A stretch of DNA of 64,000 nucleotides from Terrimonas sp. (lineage in GTDB: Bacteria > Bacteroidota > Bacteroidia > Chitinophagales > Chitinophagaceae). The stretch lies in contig NZ_QCZJ01000004.1 in NCBI RefSeq assembly GCF_003075435.1, positions 186,001-250,000 on the forward strand. The letters run 5' to 3'. Under the pieces are notes generated by a model that was not told where the DNA came from, did not search any database, and saw only the letters and a list, made by a program, of their open reading frames with translations. The position numbers and the translations under genes were made by a program. Shown piece by piece: positions 8,572 through 49,929 of the stretch. Every line of letters starts with the position of its first letter. Within the stretch, counting starts at the first letter, position 1.

Positions 8572-9909
8572 TCAGAATTGTAATGTAACAGTAATTTTTT
8601 TAGGTGTGGTTCCCCTGGTCAGTTTCCACTTTGGTCCTTCCCTGATCAGCCTTATCGCTTCTTTCTCACATAAAGGGCATGTTGAGCTTTCAATAATGAA
8701 ATCTGATACGTTTCCCCATTTGTTTACGGTAAAAGACAATTCTACAGAACCCATCAGTTTATTATAACCCTGTTGTGGAAGGCGTTCGTTATTTAAGAGA
8801 TAAAGATCATAATTGCTCCAACCGTCGGCAGGCTCGGCATCAGGTTCATCCTCATCAGCTTTTTCAGCACTTCCGGTTATTTTCTTTTTGGATTCTTTAC
8901 CATAGCCAACAACAACTACTTCAGATAAATCCTGTTGGAGAGCTTTTAAGCTGATGGTATTAGACGTTTTCCCGGAATGCAATGTAAAGTCTTCGGCTTT
9001 AAAACCAACAGATTTAACCTGCACCACCATTTGCGTGTCGCCACTCATAAGTGTGAAATTTCCGTGGGCATCGGTATATGCATAAGTGCCTGTGCCTGGA
9101 ATAGTAATGTTCGCAAATGGCAGAGGTTTATGCTGATCATCGGTTATCTTTCCTTTAAATATATATGCGGGAAGAGATGGCGCGGCATTCCTGTTTCCCG
9201 GGGCACGCTCAGCATTGCTTACGGCAGATCTGTTTTTAAAATTATCTGCTGCCTGTATTTCTGCTTTTTTTGCAACAGCTTTATCCTCCTGCTGTGCAAT
9301 GCCTTTTAATGGCACAGGCGCAGTTGCGATATCATTTTCATTTGCTTCCGCATCTGCCGCTGCTGCAACAGGCTTTTGTGCTTTCTTCGGCTTAGCCGGA
9401 GATGTTACGTGCCCTGCTGGCGGTATGTTTTCGGTTACGGGTAACTGTGATATATCTTCTTCTTTGGGAGATGTTTTTGCATCAGGCACAGAATCCTGTA
9501 ATGCAGGAGCCGCTGCCGGAGATTTTTCTTCCTGTTCAGCGGTTGGTAATTGAGCTTCTTTTTTTTGTGCGATACTGTTTTCAGCAGAGGGTTTAAGCCA
9601 TATCCAGGTAGCTGTTGCCCCAAGCAGGATAAAGATAGCCGCGGCTGCTACCCAGCTTATTTTTTTATACAGCGGAATAATTTTTACGGGTTCATCTTTT
9701 TTTTCAAGCCTTTCTTTGAGCTCTTTTATATCGGCAGGTATGGAAGCAAGAGGAGTGCCGGTATATCCTTCCAGTGCCTCAGCAAGGAAAGGATCTTCCA
9801 GCGATGCTTTTTCAAAAGCATGCATTTCGGCGGGCGTCATCTGCTTATGCAGGTAACGCTGAATATCTTCCGCGGTATAATGCTCCGTATGTTTGTGCTT
9901 TTCCTCCAT
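8572..9909 (-). CDS. Anti-sigma-like / CarboxypepD_reg / TonB-C fusion protein
   Basis: 445 residues. Residues 1-80 are a cytoplasmic helical region (YTAEDIQRYLHKQMTPAEMHAFEKA) like the N-termini of Bacteroidota anti-sigma proteins. One membrane span lies at 85-105. A long Ala/Pro/Lys/Glu linker (106-245) would cross the periplasm. Residues 251-325 are a CarboxypepD_reg domain, residues 329-337 read SEVVVVGYG, the word usually seen at the N-terminus of SusC receptors, and residues 384-445 form a TonB C-terminal domain containing a CPLC pair (411-414). The start codon shares one base with the sigma-factor stop (TAATG), implying translational coupling. Inferred role: membrane partner of that sigma factor that contacts outer-membrane proteins. 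Confidence 0.75.
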   Translation of the reverse strand: MEEKHKHTEHYTAEDIQRYLHKQMTPAEMHAFEKASLEDPFLAEALEGYTGTPLASIPADIKELKERLEKKDEPVKIIPLYKKISWVAAAAIFILLGATATWIWLKPSAENSIAQKKEAQLPTAEQEEKSPAAAPALQDSVPDAKTSPKEEDISQLPVTENIPPAGHVTSPAKPKKAQKPVAAAADAEANENDIATAPVPLKGIAQQEDKAVAKKAEIQAADNFKNRSAVSNAERAPGNRNAAPSLPAYIFKGKITDDQHKPLPFANITIPGTGTYAYTDAHGNFTLMSGDTQMVVQVKSVGFKAEDFTLHSGKTSNTISLKALQQDLSEVVVVGYGKESKKKITGSAEKADEDEPDAEPADGWSNYDLYLLNNERLPQQGYNKLMGSVELSFTVNKWGNVSDFIIESSTCPLCEKEAIRLIREGPKWKLTRGTTPKKITVTLQF

Positions 9910-10481
9910 TATTCATCCTCTTTATCCATGCATATTTTTAAATTTCGCCTGCCATTTTGTATATAGCTTCTTACTTTATTCCAGTCGTGGCCGGTTATTT
10001 CCACTATTTCTTCATAGCATTTTTGCTTCAGGTAAAACAGTTCAATCGTTTCTTTCTGCTGGGGCGAAAGTGTATCTAAACATTTTCCCAGTTTGCTGAA
10101 CTGTTCTTCTTTCTCCAGCATGCCATTCAGATGCACTGTTTCCACAGATTGCATATAATCCGGGTTAAATTCGGTGGTTTTAAGGTTTTTAGGCGTTCGC
10201 AACTGCATAAGGCAGTAGTTTTTGGTTAAGGTATGCAACCAGCTTTTAAAGTTGCTCACTTCATGTACCTGCAATTTTTGTACAAGTTCTTCAAAAATGC
10301 TCATAACCGCATCTTTGCTGCGTTCCTGTTCTTTAAAATACTTTAAACAAACACCATATACAAGCTCCATATGGCGCTGGTACAGCGCGGAAAGTACCTG
10401 CATGTTGTTGGTTTGCTTATATTTTTCCAGCAGTTCAGTATCGGTGCTGTCCTTAAACGATATGTCTTTAATAAAGGTCAA
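9909..10481 (-). CDS. ECF-type RNA polymerase sigma factor
   Basis: 190 residues. Region 2 covers about residues 37-96 (LVYGVCLKYFKEQERSKDAV ... NFKSWLHTLTKNYCL) and region 4 about 128-180 (LSPQQKETIELFYLKQKCYEEIVEITG ... VRSYIQNGRRNLK). It would direct RNA polymerase to a stress or surface regulon. Start: the frame opens with TTG at 10481-10479, an in-frame TAA lies four codons upstream, and the next ATG would remove part of region 2, so TTG (or another non-ATG codon here) is likely the true start. It overlaps the downstream anti-sigma-like gene by one base and lies about 1.2 kb from the divergent vWA gene. Confidence 0.85.
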   Translation of the reverse strand: MTFIKDISFKDSTDTELLEKYKQTNNMQVLSALYQRHMELVYGVCLKYFKEQERSKDAVMSIFEELVQKLQVHEVSNFKSWLHTLTKNYCLMQLRTPKNLKTTEFNPDYMQSVETVHLNGMLEKEEQFSKLGKCLDTLSPQQKETIELFYLKQKCYEEIVEITGHDWNKVRSYIQNGRRNLKICMDKEDE

Positions 10482-10693: not shown

Positions 10694-10881
10694 GATTGCT
10701 TCACCCGCCGCAAGGTACTTTTAATTCAATCTTCGTACGGGCGGGTTCGCAATGACGATGAGCGTGTTTGTTTTTTACTATCAGCACTGAATCAAAGTAT
10801 ATAACTACTCAACCTCTGCATCGTCATTGCGAGCCGCTTAATCAAGCTCAAAACATAAACCTGCTTCGCGGCGAAGCAATC
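10694..10881 (+). repeat. 188-bp dispersed repeat, copy A
   Basis: The unit has two arms. The left arm (10694-10757) runs from GATTGCTTCACCCGCC to GGCGGGTTCGCAATGACG. The right arm (10822-10881) runs from CGTCATTGCGAGCCGC to GCGGCGAAGCAATC, so the arm ends are inverted relative to each other. A linker (10758-10821) joins them. Copy B has exactly the same length and about a dozen mismatches. Confidence 0.85.
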
Positions 10882-10950
10882 TCATTGCAAAATCTTACCC
10901 CGTCACAAAAAGATAACATTAACTTAGCAAAACAACTTAATGCTAATACT

Positions 10951-11250
10951 ATGAACAAAGGGGGATGCGTATATATCATTACCAACAAAAATTTTACAGT
11001 TTTATATACTGGTGTTACTTCGGATTTAATACTAAGGATTCAACAACACAAAGAAAAATTCTACCCGGATTCATTTACAGCTAAGTATAATTGTTTCATA
11101 CTGGTTTATTATAAATTTTTTCCTTCTATTGAAGAAGCGATTTTTGAAGAGAAAAGAATTAAGGCAGGCAACAGGGCAAAAAAAATAAAATTAATAGAGG
11201 GAGTAAATCCCGATTGGAATGATTTATGGGAGGAAATAAAGCAATGGTAA
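10951..11250 (+). CDS. GIY-YIG nuclease family protein
   Basis: 99 residues. I start it at ATG 10951 because the longer open frame upstream (from 10768) is just repeat copy A translated. The GIY-YIG core is clear: VYIITNKNFTVLYTGVTSDL (residues 7-26), then RIQQHK, a likely catalytic glutamate in EEAIFEEKRIK, and the C-terminal NPDWNDLW. This is the short UPF0213/YhbQ-like class of single-domain nucleases. The gene is exactly bracketed by two direct 188-bp repeat copies, with 69 bases before it and 12 after. DNA cleavage activity is known for the wider family; the substrate here is unknown. Confidence 0.85.
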   Translation: MNKGGCVYIITNKNFTVLYTGVTSDLILRIQQHKEKFYPDSFTAKYNCFILVYYKFFPSIEEAIFEEKRIKAGNRAKKIKLIEGVNPDWNDLWEEIKQW

Positions 11251-11262
11251 TGTAAAACATGA

Positions 11263-11450
11263 GATTGCTTTACCCGCCGCAAAATGCTTTCAATTCAATC
11301 TTCGTATGGGCGGGTTCGCAATGACGGTGAGCGTGTTTGTTTTTTACTATCAGCACTGAATCAAAGTATATAACTACTCAACCTCTGCATCGTCATTGCG
11401 AGCCGCATAATCAAACCCGAAACATAAACCTGCTTCGCGGCGAAGCAATC
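11263..11450 (+). repeat. 188-bp dispersed repeat, copy B
   Basis: Same length, order and orientation as copy A: left arm 11263-11326, linker, right arm 11391-11450. The linker is nearly unchanged, including the words TTTTTTACTATCAGCACTGA and ATAACTACTCAACC. It begins 12 bases after the GIY-YIG stop codon. Confidence 0.85.
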
Positions 11451-11471
11451 CCATTCCTGAAGTTCATTAAA

Positions 11472-11535
11472 GATTGTTTCACCCGCCGCAAGGTACTTTT
11501 AATTCAATCTTCGTATGGCCGGGTTTGCAATGACG
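11472..11535 (+). repeat. 64-bp left arm only of the dispersed repeat, copy C
   Basis: A solo left arm with the same 64-base length as those of A and B, starting GATTGTTTCACCCGCC and ending TTTGCAATGACG. The bases after it (GAAAAGAGTGATTT) match those beside copy D. The rest of the stretch 11536-11704 shows no gene; it holds the vWA 5' region. Confidence 0.75.
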
Positions 11536-11704
11536 AAAAGAGTGATTTGATTTTACTACCAGTACTTAGGCAGAGTGTCATTTCTTATAATTTTCAAATA
11601 TCAACAACCAATACCTTAACAGCATAAAAAAATATTTCCCCCTTTTATGTATTCCCTTTTTCCGCTGCATCCATCTTCATACAAAATCATTAAAACTGTT
11701 TTTT

Positions 11705-13660
11705 ATGAAGTACATATTTTTCTTCAACGCGATAGTGCTCACATTTTTAATGGCTTTTATGCCTGAAGACCCGTTTACTGTAAACGGTAAAGTAACAGAC
11801 ACCAACGGAAACGTGATTGCCTATGTTGGCATTGCCGAAAAGGGAACCGGCAATATTACCCAGACAGATAATAATGGCGCGTTTACCATAACAGTAAAAA
11901 AGGAAAACGCGGTATTGATATTTTCTTATGTTGGCTATGAAACGCAGGAAGTAAAGGTTGCCGGCAAATCGAATCTCAATATTATTATGGTGCCTGCAAT
12001 TCGGAAGCTCGAAGAAGTTGTGGTGATAGGATACGGCACACAGAAAAAGAAAGACATTATAGGAGCTGCACAGGAGTATAAAGCCTCTGCCGTGTTGCAA
12101 GGAAAAGCAAACGGTGTATACGTAAGACGTGCTCCGGCTCCTGCCAGCCGCATGTACGACAAAGCGGAGTATAATTTGTATGACCAGGAGGATGAAGGCT
12201 ATAACACAGAAGATTATAACGGTATAACCGAAAACAGGTTTCTAACGGTAAAAGATAATCCCCTTTCTACTTTTTCAATTGATGTGGACGCAGCTTCTTA
12301 CAGTAATATCCGCCGTTTTTTGAATAATGGACAACTACCACCTGCTGGAGCAGTGCGTATAGAGGAAATGATCAATTACTTTCATTACGATTACGCGCAA
12401 CCGAAAGATGATAAGCCTTTTGCCATTCATACGGAAATAGCTGAATCGCCCTGGAACGCAGCGCACAGGCTTGTGCTGGTAAGCCTGCAGGGAAAGAAAA
12501 TACCAACAGAAAATATTCCTGCATCCAATCTTACTTTTCTGATAGATGTTTCCGGCTCAATGCAGGATGAAAATAAATTGCCGCTTGTAAAACAATCAAT
12601 GAAATTACTGGTTGACCAGATGCGTGAGCAGGATAAAGTGGCGATAGTAGTATATGCAGGTAATGCGGGACTGGTATTGCCTCCAACCAGTGGAGCTAAC
12701 AAACAAACCATTAAAGACGCTATTGAAAAATTAGAAGCAGGCGGATCAACCGCAGGTGGTGAAGGTATAATGCTGGCATATAAAGTTGCCGGTGAAAATT
12801 TTATTAAAGGTGGTAATAACCGTGTTGTTCTTTGCTCCGATGGCGATTTTAACGTTGGTATGAGCAGCGATGCTGAAATGGAAAAGCTGATTGAACAAAA
12901 GAAAAAAATGGGCATTTTTTTAACAGTGCTGGGATATGGAATGGGTAATTACAAAGACAATAAAATGCAGATACTTGCGGATAAGGGTAACGGTAATCAC
13001 GCTTATATTGACAATATGAGCGAAGCAAAAAAAGTACTGGTAAGCGAATTTGGCGGTACGATGTTTACCATTGCCAAAGATGTGAAGCTGCAGGTGGAAT
13101 TTAATCCCTCAAAAGTGCAGGCATACCGGCTGATAGGTTATGAAAACCGTATGCTGAATAAGGAAGATTTTAATAATGATAAAAAAGACGCCGGTGAAAT
13201 GGGCAGCGGGCATACCGTAACTGCTTTGTATGAAGTAATACCCGTTGGCGTAAAAAGTGACTTTGTTGAAAAAGTTGATGCACTGAAGTATCAGAAAAAT
13301 TCCGGTGATATAAATAATCACTCTCCTGAATTAATGACGGTGAAATTCCGTTATAAAAACCCGGATGCAGATGTAAGCAAATTGATTGAGCATGCGGTGT
13401 CAGATGAGCATATTGCATTACGCAATACTTCTGATAACTTCAGGTTTGCCGCTGCTGTAGCACAGTTCGGTATGTTGCTGCGCGATTCTGAGTTTAAACG
13501 AAATGCATCTTTCAATAATACCTTGTCATTAGCAAGCTCCGCATTGGGCAGTGATGAAGAAGGTTATCGCAAAGAATTTGTGCAACTGGTGCAGAAAGCC
13601 GGTGGGCTTGCGAAGAAAATATCAAAACACAAACGTGATGATATTGCAGGACGGGAATAA
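11705..13660 (+). CDS. von Willebrand factor A protein (YfbK-like) with CarboxypepD_reg domain
   Basis: 651 residues. An N-terminal signal or anchor (1-20) is followed by a CarboxypepD_reg domain (about 24-97), then EEVVVIGYG (103-111), the word typical of SusC-type receptors. A low-complexity Tyr/Asp/Glu linker leads to the von Willebrand N-terminal domain (about 180-265), the vWA domain with MIDAS motif DVSGS (281-285) and the CSDGDFNVG strand, and a C-terminal DUF3520-like part. The family resembles YfbK proteins. Predicted location: cell envelope, binding a partner through a metal-dependent site. It shares the CarboxypepD_reg plus EVVVxGYG module with the anti-sigma/TonB protein across the repeats, suggesting a joint role. 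Confidence 0.85.
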   Translation: MKYIFFFNAIVLTFLMAFMPEDPFTVNGKVTDTNGNVIAYVGIAEKGTGNITQTDNNGAFTITVKKENAVLIFSYVGYETQEVKVAGKSNLNIIMVPAIRKLEEVVVIGYGTQKKKDIIGAAQEYKASAVLQGKANGVYVRRAPAPASRMYDKAEYNLYDQEDEGYNTEDYNGITENRFLTVKDNPLSTFSIDVDAASYSNIRRFLNNGQLPPAGAVRIEEMINYFHYDYAQPKDDKPFAIHTEIAESPWNAAHRLVLVSLQGKKIPTENIPASNLTFLIDVSGSMQDENKLPLVKQSMKLLVDQMREQDKVAIVVYAGNAGLVLPPTSGANKQTIKDAIEKLEAGGSTAGGEGIMLAYKVAGENFIKGGNNRVVLCSDGDFNVGMSSDAEMEKLIEQKKKMGIFLTVLGYGMGNYKDNKMQILADKGNGNHAYIDNMSEAKKVLVSEFGGTMFTIAKDVKLQVEFNPSKVQAYRLIGYENRMLNKEDFNNDKKDAGEMGSGHTVTALYEVIPVGVKSDFVEKVDALKYQKNSGDINNHSPELMTVKFRYKNPDADVSKLIEHAVSDEHIALRNTSDNFRFAAAVAQFGMLLRDSEFKRNASFNNTLSLASSALGSDEEGYRKEFVQLVQKAGGLAKKISKHKRDDIAGRE

Positions 13661-14592: not shown

Positions 14593-14656
14593 CGTCATTG
14601 AGGGTCCGCCCGTATGAAGATTGAATTAAAAGTACCTTGCGGAGGGTGAAGCAATC
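14593..14656 (-). repeat. 64-bp arm of the dispersed repeat, copy D (inverted)
   Basis: Reads on the minus strand as the left arm of copies A-C (GATTGCTTCACCCTCCGC ... TCAATGACG). Similarity to copy A continues outside the arm: CTCAACATTTGCATTACTG is found next to both D and A. Copy D and copy C face each other around the vWA and MtfA-like genes. Confidence 0.75.
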
Positions 14657-14751
14657 TGTTGGGTGGGCAGTAATGCAAATGTTGAGCATTGGTAATATTG
14701 CCCGGCAGATATCTCTCCCGCCAGAAGATGCCTTAACTTAATATAACGTAA

Positions 14752-14855
14752 AGGCGGGATCGATATGACGCATAGCCTCATCCATATTTTAAACCCACCG
14801 GCATGAAGATTGAGTTTAAAAGCATGTTACAGCGGTGAAGCAATTTTCCTGGCTT
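14752..14855 (-). repeat. Degenerate copy E of the dispersed repeat
   Basis: Words GGCGGGATCGATATGACG (from 14752) and, further on, ATGAAGATTGAGTTTAAAAGCATG ending in GTGAAGCAAT resemble the arms of copy D but are decayed. The whole gap 14500-14990 holds only these repeats and the 5' region of the next gene. Confidence 0.5.
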
Positions 14856-49463: not shown

Positions 49464-49929
49464 AGGTACCACAAAACACACAAAGAAGGCACAAAAGGCA
49501 CAAAAACACCAGGGATTTAGCTTTTAGAAAACCTAAAACAAATTGCAGCAGTTACAAGAGATTGCTTCGCCCGCCGCAATATGCCTTCAACTCAAATCTT
49601 CATGCGGGCGGGCTCGCAAAGACGCGGGAGTGTTTGAGTTTTGCAGTCAGCGTTAAAGCAAGGTTTGTAATTGCTCAACATCCCGGACAATACTATCAGT
49701 ACTGAATCAAAGTGTAAAGCTATTCAGTCTTTCAGTCGTCCTTGCGAGCCCGCCTCAACCACTTATAAATATCAGGTTGATATGCGGGCGAATCTCAGTT
49801 CTTTTGTCTGGCTCCTTTTATTACTTAAGTATATATATTTATCTTTTAAGGTTAAAGTATCTTTTTAAAACGAAATCCCTGACAAAAACACTTTGTGTCC
49901 CTTTGTGCAATTCCACAAAACCACAATAA
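49464..49929. repeat. Repeat-filled gap with dispersed repeat copy F
   Basis: No gene. The left arm of the dispersed repeat lies at 49560-49624 (GATTGCTTCGCCCGCC ... GCGGGCTCGCAAAGACG), linker words at 49693-49730 (TATCAGTACTGAATCAAAGTG) and part of the right arm at 49737-49755 (CGTCCTTGCGAGCCCGCC). The gap is bordered by complementary words: CACAAAGAAGGCACAAAAGG near 49480 and CTTTGTGTCCCTTTGTGC near 49891. The plus-strand open frame at 49671 is repeat sequence only. Confidence 0.7.

What the first reader, a model, noticed from the sequence alone, without database searches (positions are those of the whole stretch)
10694..11450. GIY-YIG nuclease gene exactly bracketed by two direct 188-bp repeat copies
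Copies A (10694-10881) and B (11263-11450) have identical length, the same orientation and few mismatches, and the only gene between them is a 99-residue GIY-YIG nuclease. The copies have inverted arm ends (GATTGCTTC ... CGCAATGACG). Solo or partial copies elsewhere in the window (C, D, E, F) show that the element disperses. A small nuclease inside repeats it might cut or help to move recalls REP-associated transposases, but with a GIY-YIG enzyme. A bracketed unit of this kind could move as a block. This is an inference, not a known system that I can name.
Basis: partly seen in the sequence, partly recalled or inferred. Interest (0 to 1): 0.75.

Follow-up and report, generated by a model that had tools for sequence, protein, structure and literature searches.

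The report
GIY-YIG nuclease genes paired with REPs
A tiny DNA-cutting enzyme gene sits inside an array of short palindromic repeats, and its relatives in many bacterial groups sit in the same setting with a matching repeat type, which makes this enzyme a candidate for the missing partner of a widespread repeat class.

Summary
Copies A and B are junction pieces of an array of CGTC-tagged hairpin repeats (REPs) in alternating orientation, period 209 bp. The 99-residue GIY-YIG gene fills the centre of one repeat unit (381 bp instead of 21 bp). Nine of nine relatives that hold both neighbouring genes side by side have neither nuclease nor strict REP there.

Across 240 nuclease loci (239 distinct copies), 163 have a strict REP within 350 bp on both sides, 47 on one, 30 on none. 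Of 73 loci with full flanks, 66% are bracketed on both sides, against 3% of 277 neighbouring ORFs and 0 of 30 uvrC. A gene's two sides share a stem in 60 of 73 cases; comparisons with diverged paralogues in the same genome match in 13 of 119. Stem type follows the protein tree.

CGTC REPs were published as apparently lacking a dedicated transposase (PMC3733652). My reading: this GIY-YIG subfamily is their dedicated nuclease, working like RAYT-REP with an unrelated enzyme. Association and pairing are shown; recognition, cutting and movement are inferred. Against: some REP-rich genomes lack the gene. Eight searches of an open-licence library listed no paper making the link.

The parts
10694..10757 (-). 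REP hairpin (CGTC-ATTGC-GA...GCAAT-C), left member of copy A
10758..10821 (.). 64-bp spacer between facing CGTC tags
10822..10881 (+). REP hairpin, tail towards the gene, right member of copy A
10882..11262 (.). 381-bp centre holding the nuclease cassette; gene-less units have 21-22 bp here
10951..11250 (+). GIY-YIG nuclease, 99 aa
11263..11326 (-). REP hairpin, tail towards the gene, left member of copy B
11327..11390 (.). 64-bp spacer between facing CGTC tags
11391..11450 (+). REP hairpin, right member of copy B
11451..11471 (.). 21-bp centre of the gene-less unit
11472..11535 (-). REP hairpin (degenerate), end of array
14593..14656 (+). dispersed degenerate REP of the same type
49560..49624 (-). 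dispersed degenerate REP of the same type

Best explanation
The gene is the cognate nuclease of the REP family around it. I propose that it recognises the folded REP hairpin (CGTC or TGTC tag, 5-bp stem, then GA), with the variable stem letters setting specificity, and cuts at or next to it. Repair of the break from another REP-bearing copy then multiplies REP units into arrays and new places, and can put the nuclease gene into the spacer of a REP unit, so that it ends up bracketed by REP copies. Most REPs would be non-autonomous riders. Shown: the anatomy, the association in many bacterial groups, paralogue-specific pairing, phylogenetic signal, empty sites, conserved active-site residues. 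Inferred: hairpin recognition, cutting, repair-driven spread.
For: REP density 7.19 per kb within 150 bp of the gene against 0.20 at 3.5-5 kb, 80 loci. Both-side bracketing 48 of 73 against 8 of 277 control ORFs and 1.0% of shuffled flanks, 0 of 30 uvrC. Motif-free direct-repeat flanks 52% of 233 against 0.4% of 284 controls. Own-side stem match 60 of 73, against 13 of 119 for paralogues under 80% identity and 9 of 10 for closer ones; 0 of 5000 permutations reach 60. Stem changes on the protein tree 63 against a shuffled mean of 93.1, minimum 89. GA follows the stem in 501 of 643 REPs although the motif did not ask for it. ATTGC REPs and gene co-occur: gene in 108 of 129 genomes with such REPs and 120 of 266 without. 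Empty sites. Nuclease cassette in place of a 21-bp centre. Active-site-type residues 99-100% in 233-239 proteins.
Against: 28 ATTTC-type REPs in the window's genome, whose two family genes are flanked by other types. 21 of 129 genomes of the phylum with ATTGC REPs have no family gene at E 1e-6, one (G013) with 445 copies; nine of the 21 were rechecked with every candidate scored: two have weak hits (G168 3.5e-6; G204 2.3e-5 with a stop), G013 and G213 nothing better than 0.06 and 0.46, five nothing. G002 has 3 ATTGC and 8 ATTTC REPs and only a gene with a stop at E 9.2e-9. Outside the ATTGC type, nearest protein relatives share the exact stem in 33 of 96 cases. The gene lies between REP tails in 64, between tags in 53 and in mixed orientation in 46 of 163 loci, so no single unit is fixed. 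No target-site duplication or exact junction was obtained. The five window hairpins fold at best modestly better than shuffles (z -1.4 to -1.7, one +0.3). The motif is permissive: 25% of control ORFs have a match on some side.
Confidence: 0.62

Rival explanations
1. Homing only: REPs have another origin and are just the landing site. The nuclease cuts cognate REPs and its gene is copied in by break repair; it does not spread REPs.
For: The nuclease fills the centre of a REP unit. One Sphingobium site exists with no tagged REP, with a solo double-tagged palindrome, and as REP-gene-REP. GIY-YIG homing endonucleases are an established kind (recalled).
Against: Gene and ATTGC REPs co-occur (108 of 129 against 120 of 266), which fits nuclease-dependent REPs, though homing into REPs also predicts a correlation. 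In Azospirillum the insert carries a REP pair on each side, and the three empty relatives have no strict REP there.
Confidence: 0.22
2. Hitchhiking: the gene sits in REP-rich, neutral intergenic DNA, and local duplication makes the two flanks alike.
For: Tandem REP arrays without any gene exist in the same genome. Local duplication alone would make flanks match each other.
Against: Neighbouring ORFs, and uvrC in genomes that have the family, are rarely or never bracketed (8 of 277, 0 of 30). Close paralogues at other places share the stem (9 of 10 comparisons) and stem follows the protein tree.
Confidence: 0.08
3. Host-serving pair: the nuclease trims or controls REP hairpins (DNA or RNA) for the cell, and mobility is incidental.
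For: One Caulobacter COG2827 gene was reported with an SOS box and a repair role was suggested (PMC1839093, passages).
Against: Scattered presence (228 of 395 genomes) with up to 12 matches in a genome, in-frame stops in 5 of 80 copies and an insert between sufB and sufC look like a selfish element.
Confidence: 0.08

Closest known systems
RAYT / TnpA-REP with GTAG REPs (REPtron, REPIN)
   Same: Small nuclease gene flanked by its own dispersed REP family; repeat type goes with enzyme type.
   Different: Enzyme is a GIY-YIG nuclease, not an HUH tyrosine transposase; tag is mostly CGTC/TGTC, not GTAG.
CGTC-tagged REPs (Di Nocera 2013, PMC3733652; include dRS3 and RPE-4/RPE-6)
   Same: CGTC tag with TGTC and CCTC variants, stem usually beginning A-T, dimers; the paper names A. 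lipoferum, S. meliloti, R. palustris and Neisseriae, where REP-flanked nucleases were found here.
   Different: The paper says they apparently lack a dedicated transposase; window REPs have a 5-bp outer stem and long loops.
UPF0213 / COG2827 small GIY-YIG proteins (1zg2, 1ywl)
   Same: Sequence (E 2e-8 and 2e-4) and fold (1zg2 the only PDB match under E 0.001).
   Different: Structures deposited as hypothetical proteins; their own genes were not checked for REP flanks.
GIY-YIG homing endonucleases (I-TevI)
   Same: Catalytic domain; only a weak sequence match to 1mk0 (E 0.46).
   Different: No extra DNA-binding domain in 99 residues; sits in REP arrays, not in introns.

Membership tests
RAYT / TnpA-REP | HUH tyrosine transposase | tested here: not met
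   GIY-YIG only
RAYT / TnpA-REP | REPs with GT[AG]G tag beside the gene | tested here: not met
   Window REPs carry CGTC. The 643-REP set (CGTC 282, TGTC 254, AGTC 66, GGTC 41) was selected on GTC, so it tests the first letter only; GTAG REPs were not searched for
RAYT / TnpA-REP | Gene flanked by its own REP family | tested here: met
RAYT / TnpA-REP | Enzyme cleaves cognate REP | not testable with these tools
   needs purified protein
CGTC-tagged REPs | Terminal CGTC (TGTC, CCTC variants) | tested here: met
CGTC-tagged REPs | 8-9 bp stem, 4-5 nt loop | tested here: not met
   Window REPs: 5-bp outer stem, long loop. Several alphaproteobacterial loci and the Neisseria locus agree with the published form
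CGTC-tagged REPs | Dispersed copies | tested here: met
   14 exact ATTGC-type and 28 exact ATTTC-type REPs in the genome
UPF0213 / COG2827 | Stand-alone GIY-YIG domain of about 100 aa | tested here: met
   no COG library was scanned
GIY-YIG homing endonuclease | Active-site residues kept | tested here: met
   (roles recalled from I-TevI)
GIY-YIG homing endonuclease | Separate DNA-binding domain | tested here: not met
   99 aa, one domain
GIY-YIG homing endonuclease | Cuts the empty allele | not testable with these tools
   needs purified protein or genetics
Insertion sequence | Target-site duplication at exact ends | tested here: inconclusive
   Flanks too diverged in Azospirillum and window relatives

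The most novel reading that the evidence does not exclude
A class of mobile DNA spread over many bacterial phyla in which a single-domain GIY-YIG nuclease, without any transposase, spreads short CGTC/TGTC-tagged hairpins (including Neisseria dRS3 and related families) by hairpin-specific cutting and repair, with specificity written in a few stem letters that co-evolve with the protein.
Probability: 0.45. Interest if true: 0.93.

Novelty: new variant of a known kind. Interest (0 to 1): 0.86.

Why it matters
One of the two large REP superfamilies described in 2013 was left without a dedicated enzyme (PMC3733652). A candidate enzyme, with natural pairs and natural specificity variants inside single genomes, makes that question directly testable.

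Tried and rejected
Exact junctions from four 50-kb Sphingobium plasmid stretches: no clean insertion of the relevant REP type found. A strict ATTGC-only search missed loci that use other stems, so a stem-agnostic motif was used from then on. Strict one-to-one dependence of REPs on the nuclease was rejected (G000 ATTTC type, G013, G002). ATTAC REPs as evidence in the genus were downgraded on recount: they occur in G001, G010 and G011 only, which have ATTAC-flanked genes, but half or more of the matches are flanks of the gene in two of the three (away from the gene: G001 2 of 4, G011 3 of 5, G010 0 of 1), and G008 and G009 have ATTAC-like but non-matching flanks. Phages: no match to the window protein at E 1e-5. 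Rfam: nothing near a gathering score. Whether G007 carries its nuclease at another place was only partly settled: L010 matched the own genome over the gene and REPs, not over other flanks. On recount L016 and L021 are the same copy, so 240 loci are 239 copies.

Literature: ten searches, eight of them joining GIY-YIG to REP terms. None of the rows listed appears by title and abstract start to make the link; the lists were cut (20 of 21, 20 of 46, 20 of 58, 15 of 29, 2 of 3 shown), only open-licence papers are held, no preprints. Read: PMC3733652 (abstract and passages, part 1 of 4 of section 4, section 6); PMC12306157, PMC6006769, PMC1839093 (passages only).

Full report
1. The locus. Copies A (10694-10881) and B (11263-11450) are real, same-strand and 94% identical, with a third partial copy at 11472-11566. 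The gene between A and B is a 99-aa PF01541 GIY-YIG protein at 10951-11250 (no NCBIfam family at E 0.001). Each 188-bp copy consists of two inverted hairpin repeats, CGTC-ATTGC-GA...GCAAT-C, 60-64 nt long, with facing tags and a 64-bp spacer. The arrangement is an alternating array; the step is 209 bp where no gene is present. In gene-less units in the window and in two other arrays of the genome the centre between facing tails is 21-22 bp; in one unit of the window it is 381 bp and holds the nuclease. So A and B are junction pieces of an array. The 188-bp query gives 50 matches in the genome, some of which are ATTTC-type REPs with shared inner sequence; exact long-loop ATTGC REPs number 14, four of them in the window array. 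The genome has one gene of this clade and one diverged family member, L007.

2. Empty site in the window. The neighbours are a sigma-factor-like gene (9909-10481) and a gene at 11705-13660 (names by my reading of the sequences). Nine relatives in the genus hold both neighbours side by side, with 106-348 bp between them, no nuclease and no strict REP (the tenth locus, L310, is cut off, and G009 has only a distant homologue of the second gene). Flanking sequence aligns with the nearest relative, G007, up to about 10540 and again from 11642; exact ends are not resolved.

3. Association. The genus search found family genes in 11 of 12 genomes at E 1e-6. With a stem-agnostic motif (xGTC-A-N4, loop, complement, C), flanks of both clades show REPs, with different stems. 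The record titles name Bacteroidetes, Alpha- and Gammaproteobacteria, Chlorobiota, Planctomycetes, Campylobacteraceae, Anabaena, Chloroflexi, Fibrobacter, Omnitrophota, Woesebacteria and others; many are metagenome bins, so single assignments may be wrong. Motif density falls from 7.19 per kb within 150 bp of the gene to 0.20 per kb at 3.5-5 kb. Of the 80, 72 have at least one strict match within 400 bp (L093's overlaps the gene and looks like chance). Read by eye, the eight others and L093 carry degenerate REPs on both sides, except L105, which has one downstream only.

4. Numbers and controls. With 240 loci from all searches (239 distinct copies, L016 and L021 being the same one; the more distant GIY-YIG loci L008, L009 and L026 left out), strict REPs (now also with CCTC tags or a G-initial stem) lie within 350 bp on both sides in 163, on one side in 47, on none in 30. 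For the 73 of the 80 loci with full flanks: either side 65, both 48. Control ORFs more than 1 kb away in the same loci: either 70 of 277, both 8. Shuffled flanks of the 240 loci: 16.5% and 1.0%. Without any motif, upstream and downstream 300-bp flanks align as direct repeats at score 30 or more in 52% of 233 loci (12% inverted), against 0.4% of 284 control ORFs; among 135 loci at 30 or more, direct beats inverted 114 to 20 with one tie. Of the 163 two-sided loci, 43 have single REPs with tails towards the gene on both sides, and 38 have dimers on both sides, 27 of them in the same order.

5. Pairing. In 39 genomes with two or more fetched loci (G011, S. meliloti and named genomes with two loci were not entered), a gene's own upstream and downstream REPs share a stem in 60 of 73 cases; comparisons between paralogues under 80% identity match in 13 of 119, at 80% or more in 9 of 10; 0 of 5000 within-genome permutations reach 60 (mean 37.7, maximum 50). 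Over all 163 two-sided loci the two sides share a stem in 142. Same stem rises from 4% of protein pairs at 40-45% identity to 69% above 80%; nearest relatives share the stem in 92 of 168 against a shuffled mean of 34.8 (maximum 52), but only 33 of 96 outside the ATTGC type. On a protein tree the stem changes 63 times against 93.1 shuffled (minimum 89); without ATTGC rows 55 against 72.1 (minimum 65). Local duplication could explain flank matching, but not the match between close paralogues elsewhere or the signal on the tree.

6. Distribution. In 395 genomes of the window's phylum, 228 have the gene at E 1e-6 (at most 12 candidates per genome were scored) and 129 have exact ATTGC REPs. The gene is in 108 of these 129 and in 120 of the other 266 (tallied by eye; Fisher p 6e-14; genomes are not independent). 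Of the 21 exceptions nine were rechecked with every candidate scored: G168 and G204 have weak hits, G013 (445 REPs) and six others nothing convincing; the G013 candidate is a partial match in a longer reading frame. Twelve were not rechecked. In the genus, ATTTC REPs (28) occur in the window's genome, which has no ATTTC-flanked gene. Loss of the gene or cross-recognition could explain such cases; neither was tested.

7. Other insertions. Azospirillum lipoferum 4B has REP pair-nuclease-REP pair between sufB and sufC; A. oryzae, A. ramasamyi and strain B510 lack it and have no strict REP there (one of the four lipoferum REPs is imperfect). On Sphingobium plasmids one site exists as REP-nuclease-REP (three aligned; seven records cover at least 99% of the query), as a solo double-tagged palindrome (TomTYG64; an imperfect one in TomTYG74), and without a tagged REP (TomTYG72; TomTYG65, which has an untagged palindrome). 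The solo form may be a target or a deletion scar; direction is not known.

8. Enzyme. Active-site-type residues (two Tyr, Gly, Arg, His, Glu, Asn) are kept in 99-100% of 233-239 proteins (catalytic roles recalled from I-TevI). The model has pLDDT 95.7. By fold it matches UPF0213 BH0048 at E 6e-4; Slx1 follows at E 0.01 and worse and UvrC at 0.3; by sequence UPF0213 proteins at 2e-8 and 2e-4, UvrC at 0.02. Slx1 works on branched DNA (entry titles), which fits a hairpin substrate but does not show one.

9. REP form. Among 643 distinct REPs selected on GTC-A and a 5-bp complement, GA follows the stem in 501, stem letters 3 and 4 vary most, and loop length has quartiles 12, 18 and 32 (range set by the motif). 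A kept stem with a variable loop favours recognition of a folded hairpin over a fixed-length duplex site (inference). The window hairpins fold at best modestly better than shuffles.

10. Known work. Di Nocera et al. 2013 (PMC3733652) defined CGTC REPs, include dRS3 and two Rickettsia repeats, and state that they apparently lack a dedicated transposase. REP-flanked nucleases appear here in A. lipoferum, S. meliloti, R. palustris and Neisseria (dRS3-like flanks), which the paper names. My searches listed no paper that makes the link, within an open-licence library and cut lists.

Noticed in passing
G000 C1:400704-402722: Tandem array of ATTTC-type REPs, step about 185 bp, in a genome with no ATTTC-flanked nuclease found.
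   Followed up: no
G013: 445 exact ATTGC-type REPs in a single-contig genome with no convincing family nuclease.
   Followed up: partly
window 14708-14770: A REP with an ATATC stem close to the dispersed ATTGC-type copy at 14593-14656.
   Followed up: no
L142 2869-3487: Nuclease insert splits the sufB-sufC gene pair in Azospirillum lipoferum 4B.
   Followed up: yes
L138 3034-3273: Nuclease annotated as 'excinuclease ABC subunit C' on a Sphingobium plasmid, a likely misannotation.
   Followed up: partly
L259 (Sphingobium plasmid stretch): A different palindromic insert (CTTCGACAGGCTCAG type), present in TomMM7A and TomTYG74 and absent in TomTYG46.
   Followed up: no
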